Shown here one piece after another: positions 41,518 to 63,454 of a DNA stretch of 64,000 nucleotides. The notes under the pieces were generated by a model. The model saw nothing but the letters and a program-made list of their open reading frames with translations, did no database searches and was not told where the DNA came from. The stretch's first letter is position 1. Every line of letters begins with the position of its first letter. A program made the translations under genes and the position numbers. The stretch comes from Novosphingobium sp. (GTDB lineage Bacteria > Pseudomonadota > Alphaproteobacteria > Sphingomonadales > Sphingomonadaceae), in contig NZ_JAUYNB010000006.1 in NCBI RefSeq assembly GCF_030699305.1, forward strand, positions 114,948 through 178,947. The letters are read 5' to 3'.

Positions 41518-41518
41518 C

Positions 41519-45616: not shown

Positions 45617-45688
45617 CTCCTCGTGGACATCTTCCAGCCCGACGAATGCGCCAATTACTTCAAATCGTGCGGCTATGAACCGGAATGA
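45617..45688 (+). pseudogene. IS630-type transposase C-terminal remnant
   Basis: Directly after the IS6 end the plus strand reads LVDIFQPDECANYFKSCGYEPE then stop, resembling the C-terminal end of IS630-family transposases (pattern F-P-x-EC-x-NYF-x-x-x-GY). Nothing of the rest remains. The IS6 copy probably inserted into this older element. It overlaps the 3' end of the LigB-type gene by 16 bp. Confidence 0.65.
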
Positions 45689-46518
45689 ATGGAAACCGCT
45701 CTAAGCTCTACCATGGCTGTCCCGGTTACCCATTGGTTGATCGGCTCGTAACAGATCAACTCGTAATCGTATTGTCCCGCCGCAGCGATTGCGACCAGCC
45801 AGTTGCGAAATTCAAGGGCGCCATTGCCTGCCGTTTGCAGCACAAAGTCATCGCTCAGCCCAGTCAATGCCTCGATATCCCGGCGTTCGACCATGTCCAG
45901 TATGGCCAAGTCAAACTCTTCGTTGACATCGCCCATCTCCTCCGTGCCGACCCAATGGCTTAGGCCCCCCGTGCCGATAATCGCCACACGTTCAGCACCG
46001 TCATAGACATCCACGGCGTCGCGGATCATCTTCCCGAGTTCGATGCACCGCTTTGTCTTGATCAGGGGCGCCACGCCCGCGGCGATATAAACCGGGATCA
46101 TCCTGACGCCTTCGAGCTCCTTGACGATTTTCAGATAGGGAATAAATATACTGTGGTCGATAGTAATCGATTTAGCTACGGCCCAGTCGAAGTCGTGATC
46201 ATGACCAAATCGCATAATATGTGCGGCGAGTTCCGGATTGTTGGCAATTGGTGCGCGCTTGTTCTTGAGCCAATCTTCGTGCGGCCCCTCTATATCGCCG
46301 ATGCCGATGAGCATGCTGGGAAGGCAGTGGGGCCCGAACACGGTATAGTGATCGTCACCGATCACGATGACGGTATCGACTTTCAATTCAGTTAGCCGCG
46401 AGCGGATTCTAGTGAAGCCATCCATCACATTTCGGAACTGACGCTTGTTTGCGACCCCTGGTTGCGATGCAATGAGTGGTATGTGTGGGACGCAGAACGC
46501 GCCTACTAACTTTGCCAT
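45673..46518 (-). CDS. Class III extradiol dioxygenase, LigB-type catalytic subunit (copy 1)
   Basis: Non-haem Fe(II) ring-cleavage enzyme of 281 aa. Iron ligands by alignment with protocatechuate 4,5-dioxygenase are H12 (VPHIPL), H57 (GDDHYTVF) and E236 (GNGALEF); the catalytic base is H188 (GGLSHW). It pairs with the LigA-type gene 6 bp upstream. It aligns without gaps over its first 240 residues with the second LigB at 48389, so the two arose by duplication. Cleaves a catechol-like ring of unknown identity. Confidence 0.9.
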   Translation of the reverse strand: MAKLVGAFCVPHIPLIASQPGVANKRQFRNVMDGFTRIRSRLTELKVDTVIVIGDDHYTVFGPHCLPSMLIGIGDIEGPHEDWLKNKRAPIANNPELAAHIMRFGHDHDFDWAVAKSITIDHSIFIPYLKIVKELEGVRMIPVYIAAGVAPLIKTKRCIELGKMIRDAVDVYDGAERVAIIGTGGLSHWVGTEEMGDVNEEFDLAILDMVERRDIEALTGLSDDFVLQTAGNGALEFRNWLVAIAAAGQYDYELICYEPINQWVTGTAMVELRAVSIHSGS

Positions 46519-46524
46519 GTCGAC

Positions 46525-46908
46525 TTATCCCATCTTTCCCTTGGCGCCCGCCGCGCGCAGCAACGTGTGCCAGATCCGGCGAGACGCTACGATCGACCGG
46601 ATGAAGACGAATTGCCATCCGGGGATCTTCATCCGGTTGACCATCCGACCACCATTCATGTTCCTGAGATACTCGAATATCGCCAGCGGATTGCCGCTGT
46701 TGAACATGTTCCATGCCGACAGAATCAGCATGTTGCTGACGCCGAGAGCGCTGAGCGCCTTGACATCCAAGGCCTTGACCATCTTGCGCTCTGCCTCGCT
46801 GAGGGCATAATTCGCTAGGTAAGCGTCAGGATCTTCGACGAAACGCCTTACCCGACGTTTATCATCACCGAGTTCCCAGAGGATTCGCTCGATTGCATGA
46901 ATGCTCAT
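46525..46908 (-). CDS. LigA-type small subunit of extradiol dioxygenase (copy 1)
   Basis: Protein of 127 aa. RILWELGDDKRRVRRFVEDPDAYLANYALSEAERKMVKALDVKALSALGVSNMLILSAWN is the all-helical LigA fold, in which this subunit caps the LigB active site and shapes substrate choice. The C-terminal extension NRMKIPGWQFVFIRSIVASRRIWHTLLRAAGAKGKMG is absent from the second LigA at 49244. Lies directly upstream of its LigB partner. Confidence 0.88.
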   Translation of the reverse strand: MSIHAIERILWELGDDKRRVRRFVEDPDAYLANYALSEAERKMVKALDVKALSALGVSNMLILSAWNMFNSGNPLAIFEYLRNMNGGRMVNRMKIPGWQFVFIRSIVASRRIWHTLLRAAGAKGKMG

Positions 46909-46946
46909 GGGCTTTTCCCGTGTTGTGAGATAGGAGGAAGGTTAGT

Positions 46947-47249
46947 TCAGTCAGATGCCAAGTGCGCCAGAACGGCACCCGTTTCGGCGTCAACCCAGCC
47001 TTTGGAGGCGGCGTACTCCAGCATCTGGATAAATTTCTGTTGCCAGGATTCGTCGGCAGCGTGCACGCTGGCAGCCTGACGAATCCATTCGCGGCTGATC
47101 CAGTAGCCCCCCCCGTTGCCATCAACGGTCGCTATCTCAAGAAGTTCAGCAGATGTCTGCTCGGAATCAAGTACGCTGACCACCTTGAAGCGCTTGAAAT
47201 CCGACGGCTCGAGAAGGGCCACGCCCGTTTCGGATATAGAAATTATCAC
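46947..47249 (-). CDS. Unknown 100-aa protein in the meta-cleavage operon
   Basis: Protein of 100 aa, not recognised. It has a short beta-like N-terminus (MIISISETGVALLEPSDFKRFKVVSV) and a helical C-terminal half (GYWISREWIRQAASVHAADESWQQKFIQMLEYAASKGWVDAETGAVLAHL). No signal peptide, no cysteine pairs. It sits between ferredoxin and LigA in one transcript (gaps of 58 and 38 bp), which argues for a role in the same pathway, perhaps as an accessory subunit or assembly factor. Confidence 0.65.
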   Translation of the reverse strand: MIISISETGVALLEPSDFKRFKVVSVLDSEQTSAELLEIATVDGNGGGYWISREWIRQAASVHAADESWQQKFIQMLEYAASKGWVDAETGAVLAHLASD

Positions 47250-47307
47250 GATATCATCCTATCCCGATTAAATTGCGCGCATCCGGGCCGAGCTTTGTAG
47301 AACCTTT

Positions 47308-47637
47308 TCAGGCAGCCGGAGCAACGGTGACGATTAATCCATCGAGTTCTTCGGTGACCTTGATCTGGCACGAAAGCCGACTGCCCGGACGAACAATATC
47401 GGAAACTAAATCGAGCATCTCGCTCTCGATCTCGTCTGCCTCTCCGACCTTGGCTCGCCAAGCTTCATCGACATAGACGTGACACGTTGCGCAGGCGCAG
47501 GCACCACCGCAGTCGCCCATGATTCCTTCGACCCCGTGGGCTTTCGCAACTTCCATGAGCGTGTGGCCCACTTCGGCATCATTGATAACAGCAAGCTCAC
47601 CTTTCGGATCGACAAACTGCACTTTGATAGAATTCAT
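47308..47637 (-). CDS. [2Fe-2S] ferredoxin, adrenodoxin/ISC type
   Basis: Ferredoxin of 109 aa. Cluster ligands C43, C49, C52 and C90 are in CGGACACATC and SRLSC, the C-x5-C-x2-C pattern of the adrenodoxin family; C47 is an extra cysteine inside the loop. It begins NSIKVQFVDPKGELAVINDAEVGHTLMEVAKAHGVEGIMGDCGG. It could feed the Rieske oxygenase at 41995 or a P450 elsewhere. Two ATGs lie 6 bp apart; the inner one has the better spacing (9) from GGAG. Confidence 0.9.
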   Translation of the reverse strand: MNSIKVQFVDPKGELAVINDAEVGHTLMEVAKAHGVEGIMGDCGGACACATCHVYVDEAWRAKVGEADEIESEMLDLVSDIVRPGSRLSCQIKVTEELDGLIVTVAPAA

Positions 47638-47751
47638 TTTCATTTGCTCCAATCGGCCCGGCCGACAATCACCTGAGTAGGCGCGCGGCTGGCCCGCTGC
47701 GTCGTGTCGCCTTGCTCCGACGACACGGGACTTCTTCGTCGTGTTGCCGAG

Positions 47752-47786
47752 GAAAGTCGATGCTGTCTGGCTCGTGCGACTTTCCC
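47752..47786. repeat. Intercistronic inverted repeat
   Basis: Perfect 9-bp arms GGAAAGTCG / CGACTTTCC separated by 17 bp in the 160-bp gap between isomerase and ferredoxin genes; a second imperfect GTCGTGTCG / CGACGACAC pair lies at 47702-47727. It may attenuate or stabilise the operon mRNA. Confidence 0.5.
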
Positions 47787-47798
47787 GATCGACCGGAC

Positions 47799-48392
47799 CT
47801 AGCCTTGTTCCTGAAGGAATTGGTCGAGGAACTCCAGTCGATCGTTGCCCCACCACATCTCGTCACCAACAATCATGATGGGAACGCCGAACACACCGCG
47901 CTCAACAGCGCGCTCGTAGACCGCCTCATAGCGCTCGGCAGCCGCGCTCGACCCGACGTAACGGAGGAACTCCTCGGCATCCCAGCCCAATTTTTCTGCC
48001 AGCGAGGTCAGAAGTTCGTCGCTGTTCGGATCGCCGCCTTGCCCCCAGACAGCGTCATAGGCTTCACGGACATAGTCTCGTGCCATGCCGCGATCCTGTG
48101 CCAGCAGCGCGCCGGTGTTGATGCGTTTGGTATCCTTGCCCTTGGGGACACTGCCGAAAGGCAAGCCATAGCGCCCGGCCCATCGCCGCAGGTCAGTCAT
48201 CAGGTGGCGAATCTTTGGCGGTATCTGAAGATTGGCAGGTCCCGTGTTGCCCGCAGCAAGTTTCGCCCGGGTCAGATCGATCGGGCAATAGTTGATCGTG
48301 CATCCATGCTTGTCAGCCAATTGCCCCAGGCGGTGTGAGGCCAGATAGGCGTAGGGACTCCAAAAGTCGAAATAGAAGTCAATCTGCGTCAC
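47799..48392 (-). CDS. 2-hydroxychromene-2-carboxylate isomerase (NahD-like)
   Basis: GST-kappa/DsbA-fold enzyme of 197 aa that isomerises the chromene formed after ring cleavage of a bicyclic diol, using glutathione. IDFYFDFWSPYAYLASHRL with Ser12, then RAKLAAGNTGPANLQIPPKIRHLMTDLRRWA, and FGVPIMIVGDEMWWGNDRLEFLDQFL are family marks. The start is a GTG that overlaps the stop of the upstream LigB gene (GTGA), so translation is coupled. In naphthalene-type pathways this step follows extradiol cleavage and precedes the hydratase-aldolase, both encoded here. Confidence 0.9.
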   Translation of the reverse strand: MTQIDFYFDFWSPYAYLASHRLGQLADKHGCTINYCPIDLTRAKLAAGNTGPANLQIPPKIRHLMTDLRRWAGRYGLPFGSVPKGKDTKRINTGALLAQDRGMARDYVREAYDAVWGQGGDPNSDELLTSLAEKLGWDAEEFLRYVGSSAAAERYEAVYERAVERGVFGVPIMIVGDEMWWGNDRLEFLDQFLQEQG

Positions 48393-49213
48393 GCGGCGAT
48401 CTCCATGAAACCACAACCCGTTACCCATTCATGGACAGCCTGGTACTCTATCACCTCGCCGCGAAAGCGATCCACGAAGCCAAGCGCAACGATCCAGTTC
48501 TTGATTTCAAGGCCACCATTGCCCGATTCACGGATGATCTCGTCATCGCTCAGGGCAATGATTGCTTCGGCATCACCCCGCTCTACCGCAGCCATGATCA
48601 TTTGGTCCCATTCGACGTTGACCCGCCCCATTTCCTTCATGCCGACCCAATGGCTGATACCGCCAGTGCCGATGATCGCCACGCGTTCCGGGCCATCCCA
48701 TGCAAGGACCGCTTCCCGCATCGCCTGGCCGATCTGGTAGCAGCGCCGGTTTGGAATCAAGGGCTCTACACCTGAATTGATCAGCACTGGTATTGCGCTG
48801 ATGCCAGGCTTGTCCTGAAAGCACAGGTGGATCGGCAGCGATGTCGAATGATCGAGCGTGATACTCTTGGCCACCGCCCAGTCGATACCGTTATCAAAAC
48901 CATGCTGCATGATATGCTCGGCCAGTGGCTGGTTGATGCGGAACGGTTCCTGCGGCAATCTCACCCATGGTTCGATAGGGCCCGCAGCGTCACCGATTAC
49001 GATCAGGCAGCGAGGCAGACATTGCGGCCCGAATACGGTATAGTGATCATCGCCGACCACGATCACCGTATCGACCGCAAGCTCCTCCAGACGCTTCGCA
49101 ACATGCTTGAAAGCATTGCGAACGGCATCACCCTGTTCTTTCGAAGGCGCATCGGGATCTGCCGTAACGAGTGGGTCATGCGGAAGCAGGAATCCCCCGA
49201 CAATCTCAGCCAT
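48389..49213 (-). CDS. Class III extradiol dioxygenase, LigB-type catalytic subunit (copy 2)
   Basis: Ring-cleavage enzyme of 274 aa. Iron ligands H12 (LPHDPL), H57 (GDDHYTVF), E236 (GNGGLEI) and base H188 (GGISHW) fall at the same positions as in copy 1. Differences in the loops after residues 60 and 120 (LPIHLCFQDKPGISAIPV against IPYLKIVKELEGVRMIPV) suggest a different substrate. It is coupled to the isomerase gene by a 4-bp overlap, so this copy is the likelier one to open the bicyclic diol. Confidence 0.9.
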   Translation of the reverse strand: MAEIVGGFLLPHDPLVTADPDAPSKEQGDAVRNAFKHVAKRLEELAVDTVIVVGDDHYTVFGPQCLPRCLIVIGDAAGPIEPWVRLPQEPFRINQPLAEHIMQHGFDNGIDWAVAKSITLDHSTSLPIHLCFQDKPGISAIPVLINSGVEPLIPNRRCYQIGQAMREAVLAWDGPERVAIIGTGGISHWVGMKEMGRVNVEWDQMIMAAVERGDAEAIIALSDDEIIRESGNGGLEIKNWIVALGFVDRFRGEVIEYQAVHEWVTGCGFMEIAA

Positions 49214-49243
49214 GCTCCAAACTCCTCTATCTAGAATTATCTA

Positions 49244-49507
49244 TCAGGCCGGGGCGTTCATGCGCCCCAGATATTCACCAAGCGAGGCGAACCCGCCCGA
49301 CACTGCAACCCAGAACAACATGACGAGCATACTGCTGCTGCCCATCGCCTCGAGGCCTTTGACGTCCTTTTCCTTGATCATGACCTTCTCGGCGTCATTC
49401 AACGGATAGCGGGACAAAAAGCCGTCAGGATCCGCAAGAAAAGACTGGGTCTGTGCCGGGCCGCTCGCGATATCCCAAAGGGTGCGCTCGGTTGTGAAAT
49501 GCGACAT
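49244..49507 (-). CDS. LigA-type small subunit (copy 2)
   Basis: Protein of 87 aa: ERTLWDIASGPAQTQSFLADPDGFLSRYPLNDAEKVMIKEKDVKGLEAMGSSSMLVMLFWVAVSG, the LigA helical core without the C-terminal extension seen in copy 1. Pairs with the LigB copy 30 bp downstream and follows the aldolase gene by 62 bp. Confidence 0.88.
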   Translation of the reverse strand: MSHFTTERTLWDIASGPAQTQSFLADPDGFLSRYPLNDAEKVMIKEKDVKGLEAMGSSSMLVMLFWVAVSGGFASLGEYLGRMNAPA

Positions 49508-49569
49508 ATCCTATCTCCAAGACATTGGCTGGGGCCAAACCGGAACAAGCCAGACGAACGTTCTGCCGC

Positions 49570-50583
49570 CTATTCGGCCGCCACTGCTTCGGCACCTGCG
49601 GAATACTTTTGATGCAGCGCCGCAGCCCGGCGACCCGATTCGCGGGCGCCTTCCAGGTAAGGTTCGGGGACGATATGGTAGGGCGGCCGCACCGGACCGG
49701 CATTCATCCATCCCGCTGCGTTCATACGTTCCTTCTCCAGCCCGATGTTGTAGGTCGAGAATTCCTTGAAGCTGCCGTTGGGAAACAGGGTGCCGAGTGC
49801 ATGCCCGATCTCGCCTGCCATGATCTTTGCCTCGCCCCAGTCGTTGCTGAGCTTCGCCGCTGCGACAACGTCGCGGAAGCGCGTAACCATAGCTGGCCCG
49901 CACACTGCGTTGTTCGTCCAGAAGGCATTGCAGAAATCAGGCTCCATGCGTGCTGCACCATAATAGGCGGCATCGATCGGCAGAAACTTGATCTGGCCAC
50001 GTGTGGCCGCGATGTCCTGCAGCAGGCGATCCATGGAGTTGTACTTGCTTGATACAACTTGCCGAATCGAAGCCACCTGAGCCCAGAACGCGGTAGGGAA
50101 ATCGAACTTGAAGGCTTCTGTATTGGCGTAGACGCAGATTGCCATTTCGGGGCAGGCTTCCGCGACATCGCGATAGAACTGCACGGCAGTGGGAATGCTG
50201 GGCGCGCACCACATGGGCAGGCCGAGCATGGTGCCATCCGCCCCCATGTCGGCGGCAACCTGCGTCTGGCGGATGGTCTCGCGCGTATTGAGCGAAGTCG
50301 TGCCGACGAAGACCGGTACGCGGCCTGCTGCGCTGTCGATAAGAGCAGCCATGAACGCATACTGCTCATCCCAAGTAAGGGTTGCGCACTCACCAAGCGT
50401 GCCCAATGCTAGAATGCCATCGACGCCAGCTTGAACCAGTCCTTCAACCGCGCGTGCCGTCTCATCCAGATCAACCGTATTCTGGGAACGCCAATTGCTC
50501 GCATCAGCCTTTGCTGGAGTCGGCATGATCGCCCAGGCCCCAACAACTTCCTCAGTTGCGATAAGAGACTTAGATTTTGCCAT
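49570..50583 (-). CDS. Hydratase-aldolase of the NahE / DapA family
   Basis: TIM-barrel class I aldolase of 337 aa. GVDGILALGTLGECATLTWDEQYAF, then VYANTEAFKFDFP (Tyr152) and VVSSKYNSMDRLL with the Schiff-base K190 match trans-o-hydroxybenzylidenepyruvate hydratase-aldolases rather than dihydrodipicolinate synthase. It would split the isomerised ring-fission product into an aromatic aldehyde and pyruvate. The start has a GAGGTT site. It heads the operon, with the CTAG dyad 122 bp upstream. Confidence 0.9.
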   Translation of the reverse strand: MAKSKSLIATEEVVGAWAIMPTPAKADASNWRSQNTVDLDETARAVEGLVQAGVDGILALGTLGECATLTWDEQYAFMAALIDSAAGRVPVFVGTTSLNTRETIRQTQVAADMGADGTMLGLPMWCAPSIPTAVQFYRDVAEACPEMAICVYANTEAFKFDFPTAFWAQVASIRQVVSSKYNSMDRLLQDIAATRGQIKFLPIDAAYYGAARMEPDFCNAFWTNNAVCGPAMVTRFRDVVAAAKLSNDWGEAKIMAGEIGHALGTLFPNGSFKEFSTYNIGLEKERMNAAGWMNAGPVRPPYHIVPEPYLEGARESGRRAAALHQKYSAGAEAVAAE

Positions 50584-50704
50584 ATTTTCGAACCTCAGAT
50601 ACAATTGCCGCCCTCGCGCGGACGCACGAGGCAAAATCGACACACTCGCAGGGCAACCGCCCACCAGTCCGCCTGCAACCAAAATCGGTCAACTGCCGAT
50701 AATG

Positions 50705-50724
50705 CTAACATCCTAGCAGGCTAG
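50705..50724 (+). promoter_or_regulatory. CTAG-centred dyad upstream of the aldolase operon
   Basis: CTAACATCCTAGCAGGCTAG. It matches the site at 60857 at 15 of 20 positions and the site at 55893 at 14 of 20 by eye. Located in the 210-bp gap before the aldolase gene. Likely operator of a shared regulator; the regulator is not in the window. Confidence 0.6.
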
Positions 50725-50793
50725 TGGGTGACAGGCAATGGGAATTGCGCGAATTACCCGGCCCTGCATGTAAGAACAGCCCGCGCCCCAAGC

Positions 50794-51010
50794 TTAACCA
50801 GCGTGGACAAATTTAAGCCAGTATCTGGCGGTGACGAGACGGACCATTCCGAGAAAGCTGTTGGCCGATTGATCGTATCGGGTGGCGATAGCGCGGCTAA
50901 TCTTGAGTTGTCCGAACATGCGCTCGACACGATTGTACTGCTTGTAGTGCGCCGAACTATGCTCGATTTCACGCGCCGGTTTGACCGGCCAGGAACGGCG
51001 GCCTCGATAC
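50794..51010 (-). pseudogene. IS5-family transposase C-terminal remnant
   Basis: The frame ends EHSSAHYKQYNRVERMFGQLKISRAIATRYDQSANSFLGMVRLVTARYWLKFVHAG, which resembles the C-terminus of IS5-group transposases including the YxxxxRVERMF motif and the ATRYDxxA segment. Its upstream part is gone and is replaced by an IS256-type fragment in the same direction. Confidence 0.8.
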
Positions 51011-51029
51011 TCCGTTCGGCAAGGGCAGC

Positions 51030-51221
51030 CGCTGCGGATGTTATCAGATTGATCGTTGCCGCCCGGATGATGGTCCATCTCCGCATTGAGCGCCCGGTCG
51101 GCCAGGACCTTCTTGAGCGCATCCAGCAGTCCGCCCTGATCCAGAGCGATGGCCGCATCGCTGCCTGCAGAAGTTGATCGAGGGAATCAACCGGAATCGC
51201 CGACTCCTTCCGTTGGGACAT
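51030..51221 (-). pseudogene. IS256-family transposase N-terminal remnant with frameshift
   Basis: Begins SQRKESAIPVDSLDQLL, then one base is missing near 51168 and the next frame continues AGSDAAIALDQGGLLDALKKVLADRALNAEMDHHPGGND, the usual IS256 N-terminus. The rest is lost at the junction with the IS5-type fragment. Confidence 0.75.
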
Positions 51222-51334
51222 AGTGGGACTCCATCTTACCCATTATGCCTGCCCACCCATGGAATTCCTGACAACCCCCGAAACTCCCCCTTACGCCAAG
51301 GCCGCCTTAACCAGCGAGCATCCATCCAATCCGT

Positions 51335-52081
51335 TCATGGAACAGTCATGCCGCCATCCACAGCAAGCGCTTGACCTGTAACAAAACTTGCGGCCGGGGC
51401 ACATAGCCAGATCACGGCCTCAGCGACTTCGGAAGGCTGGCCAAGTCGGCCACAAGGATCATTCTCAAGTAATTTAGCTGTCATTTCTGGCGAAATCGAA
51501 CGGTGCCACATAGGCGTGTCGATCATTCCTGGGCACACGGCATTGATGCGTATGTTGCTGCGAGAGTAGTCCAGCGCGGCAGATTTCGTAAGCCCGACAA
51601 CGCCGTGCTTGGATGCGACATAGGCCGACAAGCCAGCAAGACCAACAAGGCCTGCACTAGATGCGCAGTTGACGATTGCTCCGCTTCCCTGTTGCAACAT
51701 TTGGCGAATTTCATGCTTCATGCAGAACCATAGTCCCCTCAGGTTCACAGACATGATCTTGTCCCAGTTTTCAACGCTGCCTTCAGCCGTGGGCTTCTGT
51801 TCCCCGTCAACGCCTGCTGCATTAAACGCAGCATCAAGCCGGCCGTAGGTCGCTACGGCTTCTGCAATCGTCGCTTCGACGGCAGATTCGTCTACGACGT
51901 CGCAGGAAAGGAACATTACCTCGCCGCGACGTCGCAGTTCCGCCATCAATTCTTTGCCCATCGCAACATCGCGATCGACCAGTACAGTAGCGTATCCGTG
52001 CCGCACAAATGCCTCTGCGGTTGCGCGCCCGATACCCGAGCTCGCACCAGTAACTAGCGCAACTTTTCTTGGTCCCACCAT
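51335..52081 (-). CDS. Short-chain dehydrogenase/reductase
   Basis: Classical SDR of 248 aa: [15 protein letters not shown] (NAD(P) binding), NAAGVDG, NCASSAG (catalytic Ser), [19 protein letters not shown] (YxxxK), and GQALAVDGG at the C-terminus. An Asp after the second strand (VLVDRD) favours NAD(H). It could act as a cis-dihydrodiol or alcohol dehydrogenase in the pathway. The start with MVGPRK has an AAAGGAGG site; a longer frame is unlikely. Last gene of its transcript before the IS remnants. Confidence 0.9.
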
Positions 52082-52193
52082 ATTCCGAACCTCCTTTACG
52101 TCGCACTCGAACAATCAACATAAATGATCATAGCAGTCGGAACAGGCCTGATTTACCAAATATTATTGCCAGCATGAACCATTCTATTCATTT

Positions 52194-52213
52194 AATTAAT
52201 TCTCAAATTAATT
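52194..52213. repeat. AT-rich inverted repeat before SDR
   Basis: AATTAATT-CTCA-AATTAATT in a stretch (52140-52260) almost devoid of G and C, unlike any other part of the window. It lies between the globin-like gene and the SDR gene. It may be the end of a transferred segment. Confidence 0.6.
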
Positions 52214-52226
52214 ATCTGCTAAATAA

Positions 52227-52652
52227 TTAATTTATAAATTGACTATTTACTATATTGCAAATATCAAATTCTAAACTCGCCAAGGCATCAAATTCTAGAA
52301 TTTTATCATGAGGAATGGTAGATTTAATCGCATCAATTACGCAAACAATAAGTCCAATATAGGACACTTCATTAATATTTAACGTATCTTTATGATGCGC
52401 CGCCGATCCTGAAACTTGAATTTCAATCTCCCCAGGAGATTCAAACCAAGTCATTATTGTATAGATTACTCGCTCAACCATCTCACCTTCAAGCGCATCC
52501 ACATTTCCATTTGATAGCTCATTGAAGTCCCGCCTTGCATCCGGAAATTTCTCGTAGTATTTTTTGAATACTAAATGAGTAATGTCACCCAGCCGTTCAG
52601 ATGCGCGCTCAAGGGACTGCATTATGAGTTCAAGTTTTGCGGATTCGTTCAT
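52227..52652 (-). CDS. Globin-like protein
   Basis: Protein of 141 aa with the layout of a single-domain bacterial globin. LGDITHLVFKKYYEKFPDARRDF corresponds to helix B through the CD corner (VFYKNLFAKHPEVRPLF in Vitreoscilla haemoglobin), with F43 at the CD1 position. SGSAAHHKDTLNINEVSYIGLIVCVIDAIKS matches helix F to G with H86 or H87 as the proximal haem ligand. The gene is far more AT-rich than its neighbours, a sign of separate origin. It follows the ligase gene by 13 bp. An oxygen-delivery or nitric-oxide role for the oxygenases is inferred only. Confidence 0.65.
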   Translation of the reverse strand: MNESAKLELIMQSLERASERLGDITHLVFKKYYEKFPDARRDFNELSNGNVDALEGEMVERVIYTIMTWFESPGEIEIQVSGSAAHHKDTLNINEVSYIGLIVCVIDAIKSTIPHDKILEFDALASLEFDICNIVNSQFIN

Positions 52653-52665
52653 TGATTAAACCTTG

Positions 52666-54171: not shown

Positions 54172-54192
54172 AGTCGCCGCGTACCCTTCGGA

Positions 54193-54613: not shown

Positions 54614-55543
54614 TCAGGTCAGGGCGCTGAGAAAGCGATCGTTCAACTCACGGGAGTGGTAGTAGATGGCCTTGCCCAGCTTGTCAGCCGTCCAGGTTAC
54701 CGGCTCATGATCGGGATAGAAGTAGTCGCCGCCGCAGAACACTTCCGTACGATTTCCCGAAGGATCGAAGGAATAGACGGTCTGACCGTGAGTCAGCCCG
54801 TGCCGCGTAGGCCCCATGTCGAGTGGAACGTCTTCCATTGAAATCAGATCTGCCGCACGCAGCACTTCCTCCCAAGTGTCCAGCTCGAATGCGACGTGAT
54901 GCAGCATTCCATCTTCGGCATTGCGGATGAAGGCAATATCATGTTCCTTCATTGAGCACGTGAGGAACTGCGCAATCCGCAGGTTGTTCTCGTCAATGAC
55001 TTGTTCTGAAAGGCTGAATCCCAAGATCTTCGTGAAGAGTTCAAGCGTTCCATCCAGATCAGCGCCATAGAGCAGGCAGTGGTCGAACCGGGTAGCTTTC
55101 ATTCCTGTCAGGTTCCGCGGCCAGGCTTCCGGATTGACAGTGCTAATGCCCCACTTACCGGTACGTGTCTTCTCAGCGTAGAGTTCGAAAACATGGCCCG
55201 TCGGGGAGTCGAAACGCACTCTTCTGCCGCAATCATCTAGCTCGCCAGCCGGGATATCCTCCACCTTGCAGCCGAATGCCTTGAGAGCGGCCTCCAGCGA
55301 TTCAAGGGCTTCGTTATTGAAAACCTTGAATCCGCAAAAATCCAGGCCGGGCCTATCAGTTTCACGGAGAACCACGGAGAACTTGTCGGATTCAGTCCAG
55401 CCTTTGAGGTAAACGCGCCCCGAGGAATCCCGATGGGTCTCGATCAACCCGAGAAGGTCGCGGTAGTAGCTCACCGCCGCCGCCATATCCATGACCCGGA
55501 TCTGCACGTGGCCCGGTCGCATCACTCCCTTGTACATACCCAA
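54614..55543 (-). CDS. Catechol 2,3-dioxygenase (class I extradiol, XylE/DmpB type)
   Basis: Two-domain vicinal-oxygen-chelate enzyme of 309 aa, the length of XylE. Iron ligands H155 (RFDHCLLYG), H216 (MLHHVAFEL) and E267 ([10 protein letters not shown]) and active-site residues H201, H248 and Y257 sit at the spacing of XylE. It opens catechol or an alkylcatechol to 2-hydroxymuconic semialdehyde. A plant-type ferredoxin gene lies 17 bp upstream, as in toluene and phenol meta pathways. The later meta-pathway genes are not in the window. Confidence 0.93.
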
Positions 55544-55560
55544 TCTCCATATCCGTCACT

Positions 55561-55866
55561 TCAGTTAAAGCCGGGGCTGGTGCCCTTGCTGCGAATTTCG
55601 AGGGAACTGCCTGGCATCGTCCTGCAGGCGAGGACGATGCCTTGGCCTTCCTCTTGTTCCGTCACATGGGCGCGGCTCATCTTTCCAGTTCGGTAGTCGC
55701 CGCCGACAATCTCGATTTTGCACATGCCGCACCCACCGTTGCGACATCCGACAGGAATAATGTTCTTGCCCGACCGCACTGAAGCGTTGAGCAGCGTTTC
55801 ACCGTCAAGGCAGCAAAACGACTCCTGACTTGTCACGTCTGTAACGAGATGCTCGAAATTCTGCAT
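55561..55866 (-). CDS. Plant-type [2Fe-2S] ferredoxin (XylT/DmpQ type)
   Basis: Ferredoxin of 101 aa with cluster ligands C41, C46, C49 and C81 in CRNGGCGMC and VLACR. XylT-type ferredoxins reduce the oxidised iron of catechol 2,3-dioxygenase and so rescue it from inactivation by substituted catechols. Its place directly before the dioxygenase gene supports that role here. A CTAG dyad lies 27 bp upstream of its start. Confidence 0.9.
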   Translation of the reverse strand: MQNFEHLVTDVTSQESFCCLDGETLLNASVRSGKNIIPVGCRNGGCGMCKIEIVGGDYRTGKMSRAHVTEQEEGQGIVLACRTMPGSSLEIRSKGTSPGFN

Positions 55867-55892
55867 TGGCAGGTCGGCTCCATAATGTCTAA

Positions 55893-55912
55893 CTAAAATA
55901 TTAGCATTTTAG
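55893..55912 (+). promoter_or_regulatory. CTAG-type dyad upstream of the XylT ferredoxin gene
   Basis: CTAAAATATTAGCATTTTAG, overlapping the last codons of the RibF-like gene. Shares CTAA-AT--TAGCA---TAG with the site at 50705. Implies a separate promoter for the ferredoxin and dioxygenase genes. Confidence 0.5.
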
Positions 55913-56850
55913 AACGTGGTTCGCAACCGATATGACGCGGCGTGTGATAGTTGGGAAACGGCTCGTGAAGCAGCAGTCGTCAGAGCCGGGGCGGCGAGGG
56001 GCGAATTGCCAGCGACCTCGGCAATGAGGCGCGAGTCCCCGCATTCGTCACTGACAAAAGCGATCTCGACTGGCCGATGGTCGAAGGCGACATCGCCAAC
56101 GAGGAGTTGGAGGCGCAATGCAGCTCCTGCACTCCCTTTGAGAACATCGACCACCGCAGGAGCCATGCAGCCGCTGGCCAACCGGCAGGTTGCCAGATAA
56201 CGCCCCGGACGGGGAGCAACATAGCCATCGATTTGAAGAATCGGATTTTGGTGATCGCAATCGAAAGTCACGGGACCGACGACTGAAAATGGACGTGAGA
56301 GCATCTTTTCCGCTGCCAGGCACCTACCTGCTCGAAGAGCCTCGCGAATCTTGGTTGACGAAATTTTTTCGCCTGCCTGACTAATGTCCTCCACAAATGA
56401 CACTGAAAAGCCAAAATCAGCGCAATGCTTTATGAGAAACGGTGCATCGCCGCATATTTGCTTCCCAAACCGAAAGCCATTGCCGGTCACTACGCCGCTT
56501 GCCCTGAACTTCTGGGCGAGGAGGTCTTTAATGAATGAAAGGGCTGACGTGTTTGCCAGGGCAGCACCAAACTCGAAGATAAGCATGCCATCCGCTCCGG
56601 CACCTGCGAAAAGTTCTGCGCGCTGGGCCAGGTTCGTCAACTCAAAGGGCTCGGCATCAGTTTGAAAATAGTGAACCGGGTGCGGCGAGAATGTTGCTAC
56701 GATCAGAGGGCGGGATGTGGCTCGGGCCATCCGCGCGGCTTCGGCGACAACTGCCTGATGCCCAAGGTGTAATCCGTCGAAATTGCCGAGGGCAATGACC
56801 GCTCCAAGCATCTTCTGCGGAACTTGGCGAGATGACCACAATCTGATCAT
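55909..56850 (-). CDS. RibF-like FAD synthetase with degenerate riboflavin-kinase half
   Basis: Protein of 313 aa. The N-terminal FMN adenylyltransferase domain is intact: IALGNFDGLHLGHQAVV, VATFSPHP, GNGFRFGKQ and ISSTKIREALRAG. The C-terminal half begins SRPFSVVGPV as in RibF, but the kinase motifs (GxPTAN, the GVY strand and the catalytic Glu region) are not recognisable. It may therefore make FAD from FMN only. An ATG at 56850 gives the usual distance to GNFDG; a TTG at 56883 would overlap the upstream gene by 23 bp. Unusual in a catabolic operon; the LLM oxidoreductase at 62297 uses flavin. Confidence 0.8.
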   Translation of the reverse strand: MIRLWSSRQVPQKMLGAVIALGNFDGLHLGHQAVVAEAARMARATSRPLIVATFSPHPVHYFQTDAEPFELTNLAQRAELFAGAGADGMLIFEFGAALANTSALSFIKDLLAQKFRASGVVTGNGFRFGKQICGDAPFLIKHCADFGFSVSFVEDISQAGEKISSTKIREALRAGRCLAAEKMLSRPFSVVGPVTFDCDHQNPILQIDGYVAPRPGRYLATCRLASGCMAPAVVDVLKGSAGAALRLQLLVGDVAFDHRPVEIAFVSDECGDSRLIAEVAGNSPLAAPALTTAASRAVSQLSHAASYRLRTTF

Positions 56851-56860
56851 TGAGTGCAGA

Positions 56861-57964
56861 TCATTGTTGGCGGGCTTGACCAAGCTTCGCTATCGCGGAT
56901 GGCGTATCAAGGTCTAGGAAAGCGGTCGCGTAGCGATTGACCAGTTTCGAACAGATCGAGTGGCTCTGATAATTGACGCTGTTGGCTGTTCCCAGCCAGA
57001 CGGCCAGACCATAGGCCGGAGTGCCGCGATACCTCAGCCATGCTTCTTCACGCGACGGCAGATCTGCTTGCGGAATTTCGAGCGCTTGGCGATAGAGTTC
57101 GATGAGTTCCCGTTCGTGTTCCCGGCGATCAGACACACTCAAGGCACCGACCAGGAAGTAGCCTACGTCGAAGGCCCAGTTTCCGCGACGCACACAGGCC
57201 CAATCAAGAAATCCGAAATCACCGTTTGGAACCATGTATGTATTGCCGACGTGGGCATCTCCGTGAAGCAGGGTCAGAGGTCCCTTGCTCAAAGTCCGTA
57301 TATAGGCTGTCCACGCCTTCTCAATTCCGGCGGCACCAAGTTTCATAACCTCATCAGGGAGGCTGTCTTTCATATTGGACATTCCCTTGCCGCAAGCCGC
57401 CCGCAGAATAATGCGGAATCGCAGAGTCGCATTCCAGGTTTCGACCCAACTAAGCGCGGGATATGTTTGCTCCGTGAAGCGCCAGAAGATGCTGTGAAGC
57501 CTTGCCAGCGCGCGCAGCCCGCTCGCCACTTCATCGACTGATACGTATTTCGTGGCATCGTACAGAGTGACACCGCGCGGTGTCAGGTCTTCCATCACGA
57601 CAAGCTCGTTGAGCCTCAGGCGATCGACCTGACCATAATATTCGGCGGGATGTTCGATGGGAATGTTGACGCCAGACGCATAAAGTCTGGCTTCTCGATA
57701 AAGGTTTCCGGTCATGAAATGGAGCAGCCTGTGCCAGATATCGCCCTGCGTTTTGGCGAAAACCGCGTTCGGACCTTGGCCTTGGGAGTATTCCAGCCCT
57801 AGCCTGGCTCTGCTGCTGGTCCCGTCGGAGCCGTCGAGAATGGTAACTCGAGAGATCTGTGCGCCGGGGTGACGCCGCGCGATGATCGAAGTCATCTGTT
57901 CAGGAGTAAACTGCCAATCTTTGGGTATCCGCAGAGAATGTGCACGATTATGAGGCGTCATCAT
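56861..57964 (-). CDS. Aminoglycoside-phosphotransferase-fold kinase
   Basis: Protein of 367 aa in the APH/choline-kinase-like superfamily. ISRVTILDGSDGTSSRARLGLEY opens the domain, LVVMEDLTPRG is the hinge, LTLLHGDAHVGNTYM is the catalytic loop (HGDxxxxN) and FGFLDWACVRRG gives the metal-binding Asp. This larger branch (ecdysteroid-kinase-like) phosphorylates small hydroxyl compounds, so a hydroxylated pathway substrate is possible; resistance to an antibiotic is less likely in this context. GGAGGC precedes the start. Confidence 0.82.
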   Translation of the reverse strand: MMTPHNRAHSLRIPKDWQFTPEQMTSIIARRHPGAQISRVTILDGSDGTSSRARLGLEYSQGQGPNAVFAKTQGDIWHRLLHFMTGNLYREARLYASGVNIPIEHPAEYYGQVDRLRLNELVVMEDLTPRGVTLYDATKYVSVDEVASGLRALARLHSIFWRFTEQTYPALSWVETWNATLRFRIILRAACGKGMSNMKDSLPDEVMKLGAAGIEKAWTAYIRTLSKGPLTLLHGDAHVGNTYMVPNGDFGFLDWACVRRGNWAFDVGYFLVGALSVSDRREHERELIELYRQALEIPQADLPSREEAWLRYRGTPAYGLAVWLGTANSVNYQSHSICSKLVNRYATAFLDLDTPSAIAKLGQARQQ

Positions 57965-58102
57965 GATGCCTTGCCTCCATTTCATCCTTCCCACGAACCA
58001 GGGCCGTCAGGCCACGGGACGCAGATTTCGGACAAGAGCGTTATCTTGGAATTAGGCACGCGTGGAACAGATGCCATAAGTTATTTAAACGAGGAAAACG
58101 GG

Positions 58103-58134
58103 CGGGCCTGGCAGCGGCGTAGCGGCCAGGCCCG
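58103..58134 (-). terminator. Terminator of the TonB receptor gene
   Basis: Stem CGGGCCTGG / CCAGGCCCG with a 14-nt loop, followed on the minus strand by CCGTTTTCC. It lies in the gap between the receptor and the kinase gene. Confidence 0.6.
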
Positions 58135-58141
58135 AATGTCC

Positions 58142-60748: not shown

Positions 60749-61058
60749 ACTTACCTCCATCCCTGTTTTTGGTTTTGTTTTTGGCTTTGGGGAAGCCTTC
60801 CAACTCCCCTCCAGCCCATCTCCCTATTGGCGCCGAGCGACTATTGGTTATGCGTGCTGGCATCCTAGCATCTTAGATGTTAGCGATGTGTTGAGGCCTT
60901 GGCGAGTCCTTTTTGTGTTTGCGCGGAACTCCCGCTTTCGCATGCGGGGCGGGTAGGGATTGGCTGCGTCAAACCGGTCGATGGAAGTGAAATTCCTGTC
61001 GAGAAAGATTCTTTAGCTGGCCCCACAGATGGCACCATAATTCTAGGGAGTAATGCAA
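60749..61058. promoter_or_regulatory. Divergent promoter region of TonB receptor and amidohydrolase
   Basis: This 310-bp region separates two oppositely directed transcripts. It contains the CTAG dyads at 60857-60883 and a T/G-rich tract near the receptor start. No small gene was seen in it. Confidence 0.7.
60857..60883. promoter_or_regulatory. Overlapping CTAG dyads in the divergent promoter
   Basis: CTGGCATCCTAGCATCTTAG (60857-60876) agrees with the site at 50705 at 15 of 20 positions. It overlaps a second dyad CTAGCATC-TTA-GATGTTAG (60865-60883), whose complement begins CTAACATC like the 50705 site. Two overlapping sites would let one regulator control both directions. Confidence 0.6.
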
Positions 61059-62225
61059 ATGCTTGATGCAACTGCCGCGGACATTTTCCCGCTCGAAGGG
61101 CATGGTGCCCCGAATGACCGCTTGCCGCAGACCAAAGGCGATACCGGCCTGCCTGCTGGGACGCTGGTCTTCTCTGCCGACGATCACGTTTCGGTCGGTG
61201 ACGACATCTTCTATGACAATTTCCCTGCGAACTTGAAGGAATATGCTCCCCGCTTGTGGCGGGACGAAGACGGCGTGTTTCAGATTGGCATGAACGGCAA
61301 GTCGTTCCTTCCGCCAGCCTTTTCCGAAGTTGTCAGCCACTTTGAAAGGCGACCGGGCTGTAATGCGGCGAACGTCGAAGCCCGCCTTGCAGATATGGAT
61401 GCAGAGGGAGTTGATAAGTCGCTTGTCTTCCCGAACGAGGTTCTCGCTACCTTGGCTTTCCCCGACCATAACCTTCGGGAGCTTTGCTTCCAGATTTATA
61501 ATGAATATATCGCTGAGTGGCAGGCGAAGGCACCGGACCGACTCTATGCTGTTGGTTTGATCAATTGGTGGGATCCAGCAGGCACACGCCGCAGTCTTGA
61601 GCAACTGAAGTCGCTTGGGCTCAAAACCTTCCTGTTGCCCCTGAATGCCTTCACCTTTCCCGATGGGACCAAGATCGATTACGCTGGCAAGGCGATGATC
61701 CCGGTGTGGGAGGAAATCGAGGCATCGGGCATCCCCGTTTCGCACCATATCGGCGAAGGCGATTTCGGCTATGATGAGCATAACCGCATCGCAGCAGCTA
61801 TGATCCAATTGGTGCATTCGTTCCGTGAAATGTTCGGCAAATACGTGTTCGGCGGGATCCTCGATCGGCATCCAGGGTTGAAGGTGGGCTGGTTCGAAGG
61901 CGGAATCAACTGGGCGGTATCGACAGTTCAGGATGCCACTTTTCTCGATGCCAGCGTCAAGCATACCTACAACTGGCCGCTGAAGCACACACCTGAATAT
62001 TACTGGCGTAATAACATGTCTGCCTCGTTCATGATCGATCCTCTCGGACTTGAGATGATTGACCGGGTCGGCGTCGAAAATGCCTACTGGTCGACCGACT
62101 ATCCGCACAATGAGAGCACACTTGGCTATACGCGTTCGTCCTTGCGTTCCGTGGTCGAAGCGGTGGGCGTCGAGAACGCCACAAAGATCGCAGGTGCCAA
62201 CATCGCCAAATTTCTGGGTGTCTGA
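61059..62225 (+). CDS. Amidohydrolase-family (ACMSD-like) decarboxylase or hydrolase
   Basis: TIM-barrel metalloenzyme of 388 aa in the amidohydrolase-2 family. FSADDHVSVGDDIF replaces the usual HxH strand, followed by ADMDAEGVDKSLVFPN, the metal-ligand His in PVSHHIGEGDFG, FGGILDRHPGLKVGWFEGG and WSTDYPHNESTLGYTRSSL (catalytic Asp). Related enzymes decarboxylate aromatic acids or hydrolyse ring-fission products. Two ATGs lie 6 bp apart; the second has better spacing from GGGAG. The LLM oxidoreductase follows by 71 bp. Confidence 0.82.
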   Translation: MLDATAADIFPLEGHGAPNDRLPQTKGDTGLPAGTLVFSADDHVSVGDDIFYDNFPANLKEYAPRLWRDEDGVFQIGMNGKSFLPPAFSEVVSHFERRPGCNAANVEARLADMDAEGVDKSLVFPNEVLATLAFPDHNLRELCFQIYNEYIAEWQAKAPDRLYAVGLINWWDPAGTRRSLEQLKSLGLKTFLLPLNAFTFPDGTKIDYAGKAMIPVWEEIEASGIPVSHHIGEGDFGYDEHNRIAAAMIQLVHSFREMFGKYVFGGILDRHPGLKVGWFEGGINWAVSTVQDATFLDASVKHTYNWPLKHTPEYYWRNNMSASFMIDPLGLEMIDRVGVENAYWSTDYPHNESTLGYTRSSLRSVVEAVGVENATKIAGANIAKFLGV

Positions 62226-62296
62226 CTGTTCGCCCCTAATATGGGGCGCACACCAGTACTCAAATATTGACCACATTGCTCGCCAAGGAGGCTAAA

Positions 62297-63454
62297 TTGG
62301 CCAAACGCAAAAACAAACTTCGTCTGGGATTGTTCATTCCGCCGTTCCACGCGCTAAACGAAGACCCGACACTGTGCCTTGAGCGCGACCTGGATCTGAC
62401 CCAGTACGCCGATGAAATCGGCCTTTCCGAAGTCTGGTATGGTGAACACCATTCGGGCGGCTACGAGATCATCATGTCGCCGGAACTAATGATTGCTGCT
62501 GCTGCTCAGCGCACCAAGCATATCAAGCTGGGCACGGGTGTGATCACGCTACCCTATCACAACCCGCTGATGGTGGCGAACCGCATTGCGCAGCTCGATC
62601 ACTTGACGCGCGGGCGAGTCATTTTCGGCGCGGGCCCCGGCATTCTGACAGCGGACGCATACATGATGGGCCAGGACGCTCGTGAAGCGCGTGAGAAGCT
62701 CGATCAGGGAATCGGGGTGATCAAGCGCCTGCTAGCGGGCGAGTGGGTCACTGAAAAGACCAGTTGGTATGATCTGCGCGACGCGCACTGCCACCTGCTT
62801 CCATATCAAGATCCACTGCCAATAGGCGTTGCCAGCGCCTTCACTCCGAGCGGCGGCACACTTGCAGCCAAGCATGACACAGCCCTGCTCTGCCTAGCGG
62901 CCACGAGTCCCGACGGCTATGATGCGCTGTCCGGCAACTGGAAGATCGCGCAGGAAGCCGCCACGAAATACGGTCGGACGATGGATCCGGCGAACGTTCG
63001 GTGCGCGACTGACATGCATATTGCTGAAACTCGCGAAGAGGCGATGGCGCAGGCGCGCAAGGGTTTCGACATTACCCAGCGCTACTTCATCAACCAGACG
63101 GCGCATATCGCTGCATCTCCGATGAACGTGACGCTCGATGAACTGGTCGAGCGCGGCGAAGCCATTGTCGGCACACCTGATGACGCGATTGCCCAGATCC
63201 GCCGTCTGGAAGAAAAGATCCCTGGCTTTGGTACCTTGCTCCTCTTCGACAAGAACTGGACAGGGACTGAGCAAAAGAAGCGTTCGCTCGAACTCATGAT
63301 GCGTTACGTGCTGCCTGAGATCAATGGCACGAACGTCAGCCGCCAGAAGTCCTTTGACTGGCAAGGCGTGCATGCCGAAGAACGTTTGAATACGATGCAG
63401 GAGGCGACTCAGCGCGCGTTCGAAAAGCACGCAAAGGAAAACCAGACAAGTTGA
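62297..63454 (+). CDS. LLM-class flavin-dependent oxidoreductase
   Basis: Bacterial-luciferase-like protein of 385 aa. Family stretches: RLGLFIPPFHALNEDPTLCLERDLDLTQYADEIGLSEVWYGEHHSGGYE, KLGTGVITLPYHNPLMVANRIAQLDHLTRGRVIFGAGPG and the C-terminal LVERGEAIVGTPDDAIAQIRRLEEKIPGFGTLLLF. Such enzymes use FMNH2 from a separate reductase to oxygenate substrates. The start is a TTG: AAGGAGG lies at the right distance before it and inside the longer open frame. No flavin reductase gene is adjacent. Confidence 0.88.
   Translation: MAKRKNKLRLGLFIPPFHALNEDPTLCLERDLDLTQYADEIGLSEVWYGEHHSGGYEIIMSPELMIAAAAQRTKHIKLGTGVITLPYHNPLMVANRIAQLDHLTRGRVIFGAGPGILTADAYMMGQDAREAREKLDQGIGVIKRLLAGEWVTEKTSWYDLRDAHCHLLPYQDPLPIGVASAFTPSGGTLAAKHDTALLCLAATSPDGYDALSGNWKIAQEAATKYGRTMDPANVRCATDMHIAETREEAMAQARKGFDITQRYFINQTAHIAASPMNVTLDELVERGEAIVGTPDDAIAQIRRLEEKIPGFGTLLLFDKNWTGTEQKKRSLELMMRYVLPEINGTNVSRQKSFDWQGVHAEERLNTMQEATQRAFEKHAKENQTS

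What the first reader, a model, noticed from the sequence alone, without database searches (positions are those of the whole stretch)
45673..63454. Mosaic aromatic-degradation cluster with two LigAB dioxygenases, NahD/NahE-type enzymes and a separate XylE-type dioxygenase
Two class III extradiol pairs, an isomerase and a hydratase-aldolase in one operon, plus a class I catechol 2,3-dioxygenase with its repair ferredoxin, a CoA ligase, SDR, LLM oxidoreductase, decarboxylase-like amidohydrolase and TonB receptor. Naphthalene-type upper pathways usually use class I dioxygenases for the bicyclic diol; here a duplicated LigAB system seems to take that place. The order suggests two ring openings, then catechol cleavage. 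The substrate and the exact route are unknown, so this is the best candidate for an undescribed system.
Basis: partly seen in the sequence, partly recalled or inferred. Interest (0 to 1): 0.75.

Follow-up and report, generated by a model that had tools for sequence, protein, structure and literature searches.

The report
Split flavin-and-LigAB bicyclic ring-opening pathway
This bacterial genomic island encodes enzymes of a kind already shown elsewhere to open the ring of naphthalene-like compounds, and matching flavin-enzyme genes lie on another contig of the same genome, so the two sets likely form one pathway that would begin with flavin enzymes instead of the usual Rieske dioxygenase; the true substrate is untested.

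Summary
LigA2-LigB2-NahD-NahE (47,799-50,583) is not an undescribed replacement for NahC: LigB2 groups with the PhnC/McbB kind, McbB is a demonstrated 1,2-dihydroxynaphthalene dioxygenase (PMC5141477), and the same block occurs in 15 of 46 related loci. The two LigAB pairs are not a local duplication: LigB1 and LigB2 are 50% identical and sit in separate supported clades; LigB1 has no characterised relative that I found. The cluster is an IS-scarred mosaic in a low-GC island beside tRNA-Ser, not one clean operon. What is new: in 3 of 4 loci of LigB2's own clade the block stands with KstD-, HsaA-, luciferase-like (LLM), hydrolase and flavin-reductase genes and no Rieske oxygenase was detected, while that set was found in 0 of 35 other related loci, of which at least 29 have one. 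The window's own genome carries this missing half, in the same order, on contig C8. I infer a split pathway: flavin enzymes make a bicyclic diol, LigA2B2/NahD/NahE open it, and LLM plus hydrolase may turn the aldehyde into catechol for XylE. Substrate and expression are untested. New variant of a known kind.

The parts
45673..46518 (-). LigB1, class III (LigB-type) extradiol dioxygenase catalytic subunit; metal/base residues H12, H57, H188, E236 present; last ~10 codons come from IS debris
   Evidence: Pfam PF02900 138.6 bits; alignment A1; tree, 10-row clade 100/100; C-terminus against P0004
46525..46908 (-). LigA1 small subunit
   Evidence: Pfam PF07746 37.1 bits; 40% identical to LigA2 over 85 aa
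46947..47249 (-). 100-aa gene of unknown function; relatives stand beside or inside flavin-reductase/LLM genes in some plasmids
   Evidence: tblastn 11 plasmid records; 6 other of 385 class genomes; contexts
47308..47643 (-). Fdx1, [2Fe-2S] ferredoxin
   Evidence: Pfam Fer2 32.5 bits on the longer ORF; TIGR02007 below cut-off
47799..48428 (-). NahD-type 2-hydroxychromene-2-carboxylate isomerase
   Evidence: Pfam DSBA 183 bits; PDB 2imd 190 bits
48389..49213 (-). LigB2, PhnC/McbB-type extradiol dioxygenase catalytic subunit
   Evidence: Pfam PF02900 130.8 bits; 58.8% to the carbaryl-plasmid enzyme of Pseudomonas XWY-1; tree
49244..49507 (-). LigA2 small subunit
   Evidence: Pfam PF07746 26.8 bits, cut-off 25.3
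49570..50583 (-). NahE-type hydratase-aldolase, the only close one in the genome
   Evidence: PDB 9frt 420 bits; the other own-genome match is a 26% partial one
50789..51024 (.). IS4/5-type transposase remnant between NahE and SDR
   Evidence: 86% to NZ_CP028348.1; transposase Pfam on that record's ORFs; broken frames
45620..45704 (.). IS630-type remnant fused to the 3' end of LigB1
   Evidence: 93-94% to two Sphingobium plasmids
44871..45491 (-). IS6/IS240-type transposase at the island side of LigB1
   Evidence: Pfam DDE_Tnp_IS240
51335..52114 (-). SDR oxidoreductase
   Evidence: Pfam adh_short_C2 230 bits
52666..54171 (-). AMP-dependent CoA ligase, a family-wide gene type with a second copy on C29
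   Evidence: Pfam; DNA match
54614..55543 (-). XylE-type catechol 2,3-dioxygenase
   Evidence: TIGR03211 416 bits, cut-off 320; 69.1% to a P. putida plasmid enzyme
55561..55866 (-). XylT-like [2Fe-2S] ferredoxin (repair role recalled from the XylT family)
   Evidence: Pfam Fer2 52 bits
58142..60760 (-). TonB-dependent receptor
   Evidence: Pfam barrel and plug
61053..62225 (+). Amidohydro_2 protein (decarboxylase-like role not shown)
   Evidence: Pfam 60 bits
62267..63454 (+). LLM (luciferase-like) oxidoreductase, a different family from the C8 LLM (29% over part)
   Evidence: Pfam 151 bits

Best explanation
Window 47,799-50,583 encodes a NahD-type isomerase, a LigA/LigB pair of the PhnC/McbB kind and the genome's only close NahE-type aldolase, which together would open the ring of a dihydroxynaphthalene-like compound that is likely made by flavin enzymes encoded on another contig (C8) rather than by a Rieske dioxygenase. 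Proposed route (inferred unless marked): a KstD-like dehydrogenase aromatises a bicyclic ketone or enone to a naphthol; an HsaA-like oxygenase with its flavin reductase adds the second hydroxyl; LigA2B2 cleaves the diol (shown for the relative McbB, not for this protein); NahD isomerises the product; NahE splits it into pyruvate and a salicylaldehyde-type aldehyde; the C8 luciferase-like enzyme, acting as a type II Baeyer-Villiger oxygenase, and the adjacent alpha/beta hydrolase turn that aldehyde into catechol plus formate; XylE in the island cleaves catechol, with a hydrolase gene on C8 as a candidate for the next step. Shown directly: the gene content, the clades, the conserved linkage of both halves in three other loci, and their separation in this genome. 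LigA1B1 is a separately acquired second ring-cleavage enzyme whose substrate I cannot name.
For: LigB2 is in a 45-row group (98/94) that also holds the XWY-1 carbaryl-plasmid enzyme and Burkholderia lig30/BC1 enzymes; C5pp McbB was active on 1,2-dihydroxynaphthalene and not on protocatechuate (passages). NahE-LigA-LigB-NahD stand in this order in 15 of 46 fetched genome loci. In L042, L045 and L046 the block lies beside KstD-, HsaA-, LLM-, hydrolase- and flavin-reductase genes. HsaA, LLM and ABH queries matched 3 of 4 LigB2-clade loci and flavin reductase 4 of 4; all four matched 0 of 35 other loci; no Rieske alpha gene was found in the 4, against 29 of 35. Own contig C8 carries KstD<- ->HsaA-LLM-ABH-flavin reductase-MhpC-AraC-GntR in the order of L046/L045 at 58-88% identity. 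NahE is unique in the genome. LLM relatives share contig lengths with LigB2 relatives in 7 of 23 rows against 0 of 45 more distant rows. The LLM-ABH-reductase trio also stands by catA on a Rhodococcus naphthalene plasmid. An LLM-hydrolase pair is induced on anthraquinone in Sphingobium AntQ-1 and interpreted there as type II BVMO plus lactone hydrolase. L042 has XylT-XylE directly after NahD.
Against: No expression, substrate or enzyme data exist for this genome. The two halves lie on different contigs, so the link is by homology only. The fourth LigB2-clade locus (L034) lacks HsaA, LLM and ABH within its 14 kb. The comparison queries came from the LigB2-clade loci themselves, and the loci are few and not independent. 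My Rieske search missed one that is annotated in L119, so absence in the 4 is tentative. Four Rieske alpha genes exist in the genome and could make the diol. KstD-, HsaA- and reductase-like proteins score below the NCBIfam equivalog cut-offs. IS debris cuts both halves. L045 has an aldehyde dehydrogenase after NahD, which fits ordinary salicylaldehyde oxidation as well. Three of the seven shared contig lengths are megabase chromosomes and say little.
Confidence: 0.45

Rival explanations
1. An ordinary phn-type PAH pathway: one of the genome's Rieske dioxygenases makes the diol, and the C8 flavin genes serve something else.
For: Most related loci have a Rieske alpha gene nearby (29 of 35; L119 has a further annotated one); four Rieske alpha genes lie in this genome, one at 41986-43410 close by.
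Against: None was detected in the 4 loci of LigB2's own clade. The window's RHO lies inside a piece bounded by a 16-bp repeat of the tRNA end (39062, 43869), outside the LigAB cluster, and matches no curated ring-dioxygenase model above cut-off.
Confidence: 0.25
2. A decaying mosaic: catabolic pieces brought together by IS elements, with no working pathway in this strain.
For: IS4/5 and IS630 debris inside the region, IS6 copies at both sites, altered LigB1 C-terminus, no 2-hydroxymuconic semialdehyde dehydrogenase over the NCBIfam cut-off.
Against: LigB1, LigB2, NahD, NahE and XylE are full-length, LigB metal and base residues are intact, and a 4-hydroxy-2-oxovalerate aldolase over cut-off exists at two places.
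Confidence: 0.18
3. One reading: two LigAB pairs open two successive rings of a tricyclic compound (phenanthrene-like), then XylE cleaves catechol.
For: Two LigAB pairs of different clades in one module; a second LigB also stands near the first in an Immundisolibacter contig (L031).
Against: LigB1's nearest genome loci (L026, L027) show no NahD or NahE in the stretch held, and only one isomerase and one aldolase are in the module.
Confidence: 0.1

Closest known systems
phn cluster of Burkholderia sp. RP007 (PhnC, PhnD, PhnE)
   Same: LigB-type enzyme active on 1,2-dihydroxynaphthalene according to PMC5141477 (passages); isomerase and hydratase-aldolase beside it (gene order recalled; original paper not held)
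   Different: Rieske dioxygenase genes follow in phn-type loci; none detected in LigB2's clade, where flavin genes stand instead
mcb cluster for carbaryl (Pseudomonas C5pp; XWY-1 plasmid, L118)
   Same: LigA-LigB, NahD, NahE; no Rieske enzyme for the first hydroxylation, a flavin monooxygenase (1-naphthol 2-hydroxylase) instead; LigB2 58.8% identical to the XWY-1 enzyme
   Different: McbC is a single-component flavoprotein; the C8 oxygenase is of the two-component HsaA fold. KstD-, LLM- and ABH-like genes are not among the features listed for that XWY-1 stretch
Sphingobium sp. AntQ-1 anthraquinone pathway (type II BVMO plus hydrolase)
   Same: luciferase-like enzyme plus alpha/beta hydrolase, xylE meta pathway, genes scattered over replicons (sections read)
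   Different: no PAH ring-cleavage dioxygenase there; the substrate is a tricyclic quinone; no sequence comparison was made here
Hsa genes of steroid degradation (HsaA, HsaB, HsaD, KstD)
   Same: same enzyme folds
   Different: scores below the HsaA, HsaB, HsaD and KstD cut-offs; ring cleavage is by LigAB with NahD/NahE in these loci

Membership tests
PhnC/McbB-type dihydroxynaphthalene ring-opening module | LigB-type catalytic subunit with conserved metal ligands and base | tested here: met
   H12, H57, H188, E236 in LigB1 and LigB2; residue roles recalled from SYK-6 LigB
PhnC/McbB-type dihydroxynaphthalene ring-opening module | LigB groups with the characterised enzymes: LigB2 | tested here: met
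   45-row group 98/94 with the XWY-1 enzyme and lig30; the tighter 26-row group is 95/79. The XWY-1 gene is taken as McbB by equal gene lengths of mcbA-D
PhnC/McbB-type dihydroxynaphthalene ring-opening module | LigB groups with the characterised enzymes: LigB1 | tested here: not met
   own 10-row clade 100/100 outside that group
PhnC/McbB-type dihydroxynaphthalene ring-opening module | NahD-type isomerase and NahE-type aldolase adjacent | tested here: met
PhnC/McbB-type dihydroxynaphthalene ring-opening module | activity on 1,2-dihydroxynaphthalene | not testable with these tools
   needs purified enzyme
phn-type PAH cluster | Rieske dioxygenase in the cluster | tested here: not met
   none in 45.6-63.5 kb by Pfam; none detected in the 4 LigB2-clade loci
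Catechol 2,3-dioxygenase (XylE) | TIGR03211 over cut-off | tested here: met
   416.1 against 320.2 bits
HsaA 3-HSA monooxygenase (C8 gene) | NF045629 over cut-off | tested here: not met
   316.6 against 450 bits
KstD 3-ketosteroid dehydrogenase (C8 gene) | NF009478 over cut-off | tested here: not met
   509.1 against 789 bits
Type II Baeyer-Villiger monooxygenase (C8 LLM) | luciferase-like oxygenase with flavin reductase and ester hydrolase genes beside it | tested here: met
Type II Baeyer-Villiger monooxygenase (C8 LLM) | groups with diketocamphane monooxygenases; oxidises a carbonyl | not tested
   no tree made; no assay

The most novel reading that the evidence does not exclude
The island and contig C8 together encode a Rieske-free pathway for bicyclic compounds: a steroid-type dehydrogenase and an HsaAB-like flavin hydroxylase make a dihydroxynaphthalene from an alicyclic ketone or naphthol, LigA2B2/NahD/NahE open it, and a luciferase-type Baeyer-Villiger enzyme with an esterase converts salicylaldehyde straight to catechol plus formate, bypassing salicylate.
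Probability: 0.27. Interest if true: 0.65.

Novelty: new variant of a known kind. Interest (0 to 1): 0.45.

Why it matters
Surveys of PAH-type degradation often use Rieske dioxygenase genes as markers. If this hybrid works as inferred, bicyclic aromatic breakdown could go unseen by those markers, the natural substrate could be a partly saturated or already oxygenated bicycle instead of a hydrocarbon, and the salicylaldehyde-to-catechol shortcut would be directly testable. It also shows a catabolic pathway whose two conserved halves are now apart in one genome and scarred by IS elements.

Tried and rejected
Recent duplication of LigAB: rejected, the two LigB proteins have separate clades. LigA1B1 as protocatechuate or gallate dioxygenase: the NCBIfam models score far below their cut-offs, so not filed there. 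The CoA ligase as a cluster-specific step: rejected, family-wide gene pair with a copy on C29. Plasmid origin of the island: the whole-region megablast found only the aldolase gene (7 records) and three short patches among 10 plasmid records; a ribosomal L20-like protein is encoded in C18 (L127; name recalled from its sequence), so I take C18 as chromosomal. The window's RHO as the first enzyme: not excluded, but it lies in a separate att-bounded piece. The second Rieske-LigAB cluster of this genome (contig C4, 4,193 bp, L121) is a different LigB clade. Contexts of LigB1 relatives (L026: LLM-like, alpha/beta hydrolase; L027: UbiD, SDR, enoyl-CoA hydratases, PaaA/PaaC-like) gave no common substrate. 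The 141-aa gene 52227-52652 looked globin-like to me but no Pfam, NCBIfam, PHROGs or PDB match supports that. Literature: ten searches showed no paper that describes KstD/HsaA/LLM genes with LigAB-NahD-NahE; only listings and, for eight papers, passages, an outline or sections were seen, so absence from print is not claimed. No structure was predicted.


Full report
What is there. Reading the minus strand from the receptor, the order is TonB receptor, kinase-like, FAD-synthetase-like, XylT-like ferredoxin, XylE, a 96-aa gene, CoA ligase, a 141-aa gene, SDR, IS4/5 debris, NahE, LigA2, LigB2, NahD, ferredoxin, a 100-aa gene, LigA1, LigB1, IS debris. Amidohydro_2 and an LLM gene run the other way.

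Setting. GC is 0.625-0.683 in window 0-38 kb and 0.54-0.589 in 42-64 kb (2-kb bins). A tRNA-Ser gene (38987-39077) is followed by an integrase (39194-40462). Its last 16 bases recur exactly at 43869, so a 4.8-kb piece with the integrase, an IS6 transposase and the Rieske alpha gene is bounded by direct repeats; the LigAB cluster lies beyond it. The window ends at the contig end, in a PEP-utilising enzyme gene. The genus is probably Novosphingobium: a same-genus genome has a 76,094-base contig and a LigB sequence identical to those of N. hassiacum.

The LigAB-NahD-NahE module. LigB2 is 58.8% identical to the enzyme of the carbaryl plasmid of Pseudomonas XWY-1, whose region has aldehyde dehydrogenase, DHDPS-family, isomerase, FAD monooxygenase, a small gene and LigB. 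Its mcbA-D gene lengths equal those given for strain C5pp, so I take it as McbB. C5pp McbB had 1,2-dihydroxynaphthalene dioxygenase activity, none on protocatechuate, and 68% identity to PhnC of RP007 (PMC5141477, passages). Burkholderia FM-2 is described with phnCa/phnCb as LigA/LigB subunits (PMC12472010, passages). In 15 of the 46 genome loci L026-L071 the order NahE-LigA-LigB-NahD is found (L039, L042, L045-L048, L050, L051, L054-L056, L064, L066, L067, L069), and in 11 of these a Rieske-like match follows. The scan that gave these loci kept 80 of 540 confirmed relatives. The substitution of LigAB for NahC is therefore known.

Two LigB lineages. In a tree of 83 rows (80 different) LigB1 is in a 10-row clade (100/100) and LigB2 in a 9-row clade (99/88) inside a 45-row group (98/94) with the carbaryl and lig30/BC1 enzymes; the 26-row group that joins them more closely has 95/79. 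The tool flagged long branches, none of them the window rows. LigB1's closest genome loci are MAG contigs at 73% and 68% without NahD or NahE in the DNA held.

The hybrid context. LigB2's clade is represented by four loci with context: L034, L042, L045, L046. In three, the module stands beside genes for a KstD-like dehydrogenase (cut by the locus end in L042 and L046), an HsaA-like oxygenase, an LLM enzyme, an alpha/beta hydrolase, a p-hydroxyphenylacetate-hydroxylase-type flavin reductase and a GntR regulator, plus an HsaD/BphD-like hydrolase in two. At E 1e-20 and half the query length, HsaA, LLM and ABH match 3 of 4, reductase and GntR 4 of 4; HsaA, LLM, ABH, reductase and GntR match 0 of 35 other loci, KstD 1 of 35 and MhpC 1 of 35. 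The 35 are the remaining L033-L071 loci with a phn-like or related LigB plus plasmids L118-L120; the two LigB1-clade and eight Immundisolibacter-type loci were counted apart (0 of 10 for HsaA, LLM, ABH, reductase), and L072-L105 and the short own-family loci were left out. At the looser 1e-8 a few weak matches appear (L057 LLM 28% and reductase 38%; L070 HsaA 27%). Rieske alpha genes were found in 29 of 35 and 0 of 4; L119 has an annotated one that my search missed. Fisher's test on 3 of 4 against 0 of 35 gives 0.0004, but the loci are not independent and the queries came from the clade itself.

The missing half. The same genome has, on contig C8 (L194), GntR, AraC, MhpC/HsaD-like, flavin reductase, ABH, LLM, HsaA-like and, divergent, KstD-like genes in the order of L046/L045, at 71-88% identity to L046 and L045 for the genes compared and 58-80% to the first query set (Pfam). 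Downstream of GntR the homology ends in IS remains: an internally deleted copy of the element at window 44821-45620 (96-100% in two patches), and further on an IS6 copy 89% identical to window 40681-41522. In L045 NahE follows GntR directly; in L046 a SnoaL-like match lies between. NahE has no second close copy in the genome. An independent hint: among LLM relatives, 7 of 23 rows on contigs of 5 kb or more in the top 32 share their longest-contig length with a LigB2 relative, against 0 of 45 lower rows; the 8,011- and 14,819-base contigs are the tightest cases, three others are megabase contigs.

Mechanism. KstD-like enzymes aromatise cyclic ketones in other pathways (NCBIfam ChcC models score 303-335 bits, below cut-off), and HsaA-like enzymes hydroxylate phenols beside an existing hydroxyl (family knowledge). 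LigA2B2, NahD and NahE would then give pyruvate and a salicylaldehyde. The LLM-ABH-reductase trio also occurs beside catA on a Rhodococcus naphthalene plasmid and near maleylacetate reductase in Caballeronia SBC2. In Sphingobium AntQ-1 an LLM-hydrolase pair is induced on anthraquinone and interpreted as type II Baeyer-Villiger oxygenase and lactone hydrolase, and a second BVMO-hydrolase pair (type I) as the step that yields catechol from a 2-hydroxyaryl ketone (PMC9836352, abstract and sections 18-19). I therefore propose salicylaldehyde to catechyl formate to catechol, feeding XylE. This step is inference; an aldehyde dehydrogenase follows NahD in L045 and fits ordinary salicylate formation as well. 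A 4-hydroxy-2-oxovalerate aldolase over cut-off lies at C8 and C39; no 2-hydroxymuconic semialdehyde dehydrogenase reaches its cut-off, the best being 416 of 693 bits at C18:93902.

Verdict. The unlisted feature is the flavin-type context and its split in this genome: a new variant of a known kind, with the substrate open.

Noticed in passing
window 46947-47249 (-): A 100-aa gene without Pfam match has 26-42% relatives, one of them the start of a Sulfitobacter flavin reductase beside an LLM gene.
   Followed up: partly
window 52227-52652 (-): A 141-aa gene at GC 0.45 (52-53 kb) with relatives of 29-41% identity in 22 other of 396 genomes of the order; family unknown.
   Followed up: partly
window 55909-56883 (-): An FAD-synthetase-like gene inside the catabolic island, overlapping an EcKL/APH kinase-like gene.
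   Followed up: no
window 39062-43884: A 4.8-kb piece with integrase, IS6 transposase and a Rieske alpha gene between two exact 16-bp copies of the tRNA-Ser end.
   Followed up: partly
L121 (contig C4, 4193 bases): A second cluster, LigA-LigB followed by Rieske alpha and a likely beta subunit, on a tiny contig of the same genome, of another LigB clade.
   Followed up: partly
L027 5981-9198: Near a LigB1-type pair: two enoyl-CoA hydratases and two PaaA/PaaC-like proteins (one below the Pfam cut-off), hinting at a CoA-ester aromatic route.
   Followed up: no
L207 12001-15832: LLM, alpha/beta hydrolase, flavin reductase and catA in a row on Rhodococcus plasmid pNAPH.
   Followed up: partly
L055 and L057: Novosphingobium malaysiense carries two related LigB loci about 35 kb apart on one contig.
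   Followed up: no
window 61053-63454 (+): An Amidohydro_2 and LLM gene pair of unknown role, divergent from the TonB receptor; the amidohydrolase is 54% identical to one beside a P450 in Mycobacterium branderi.
   Followed up: no
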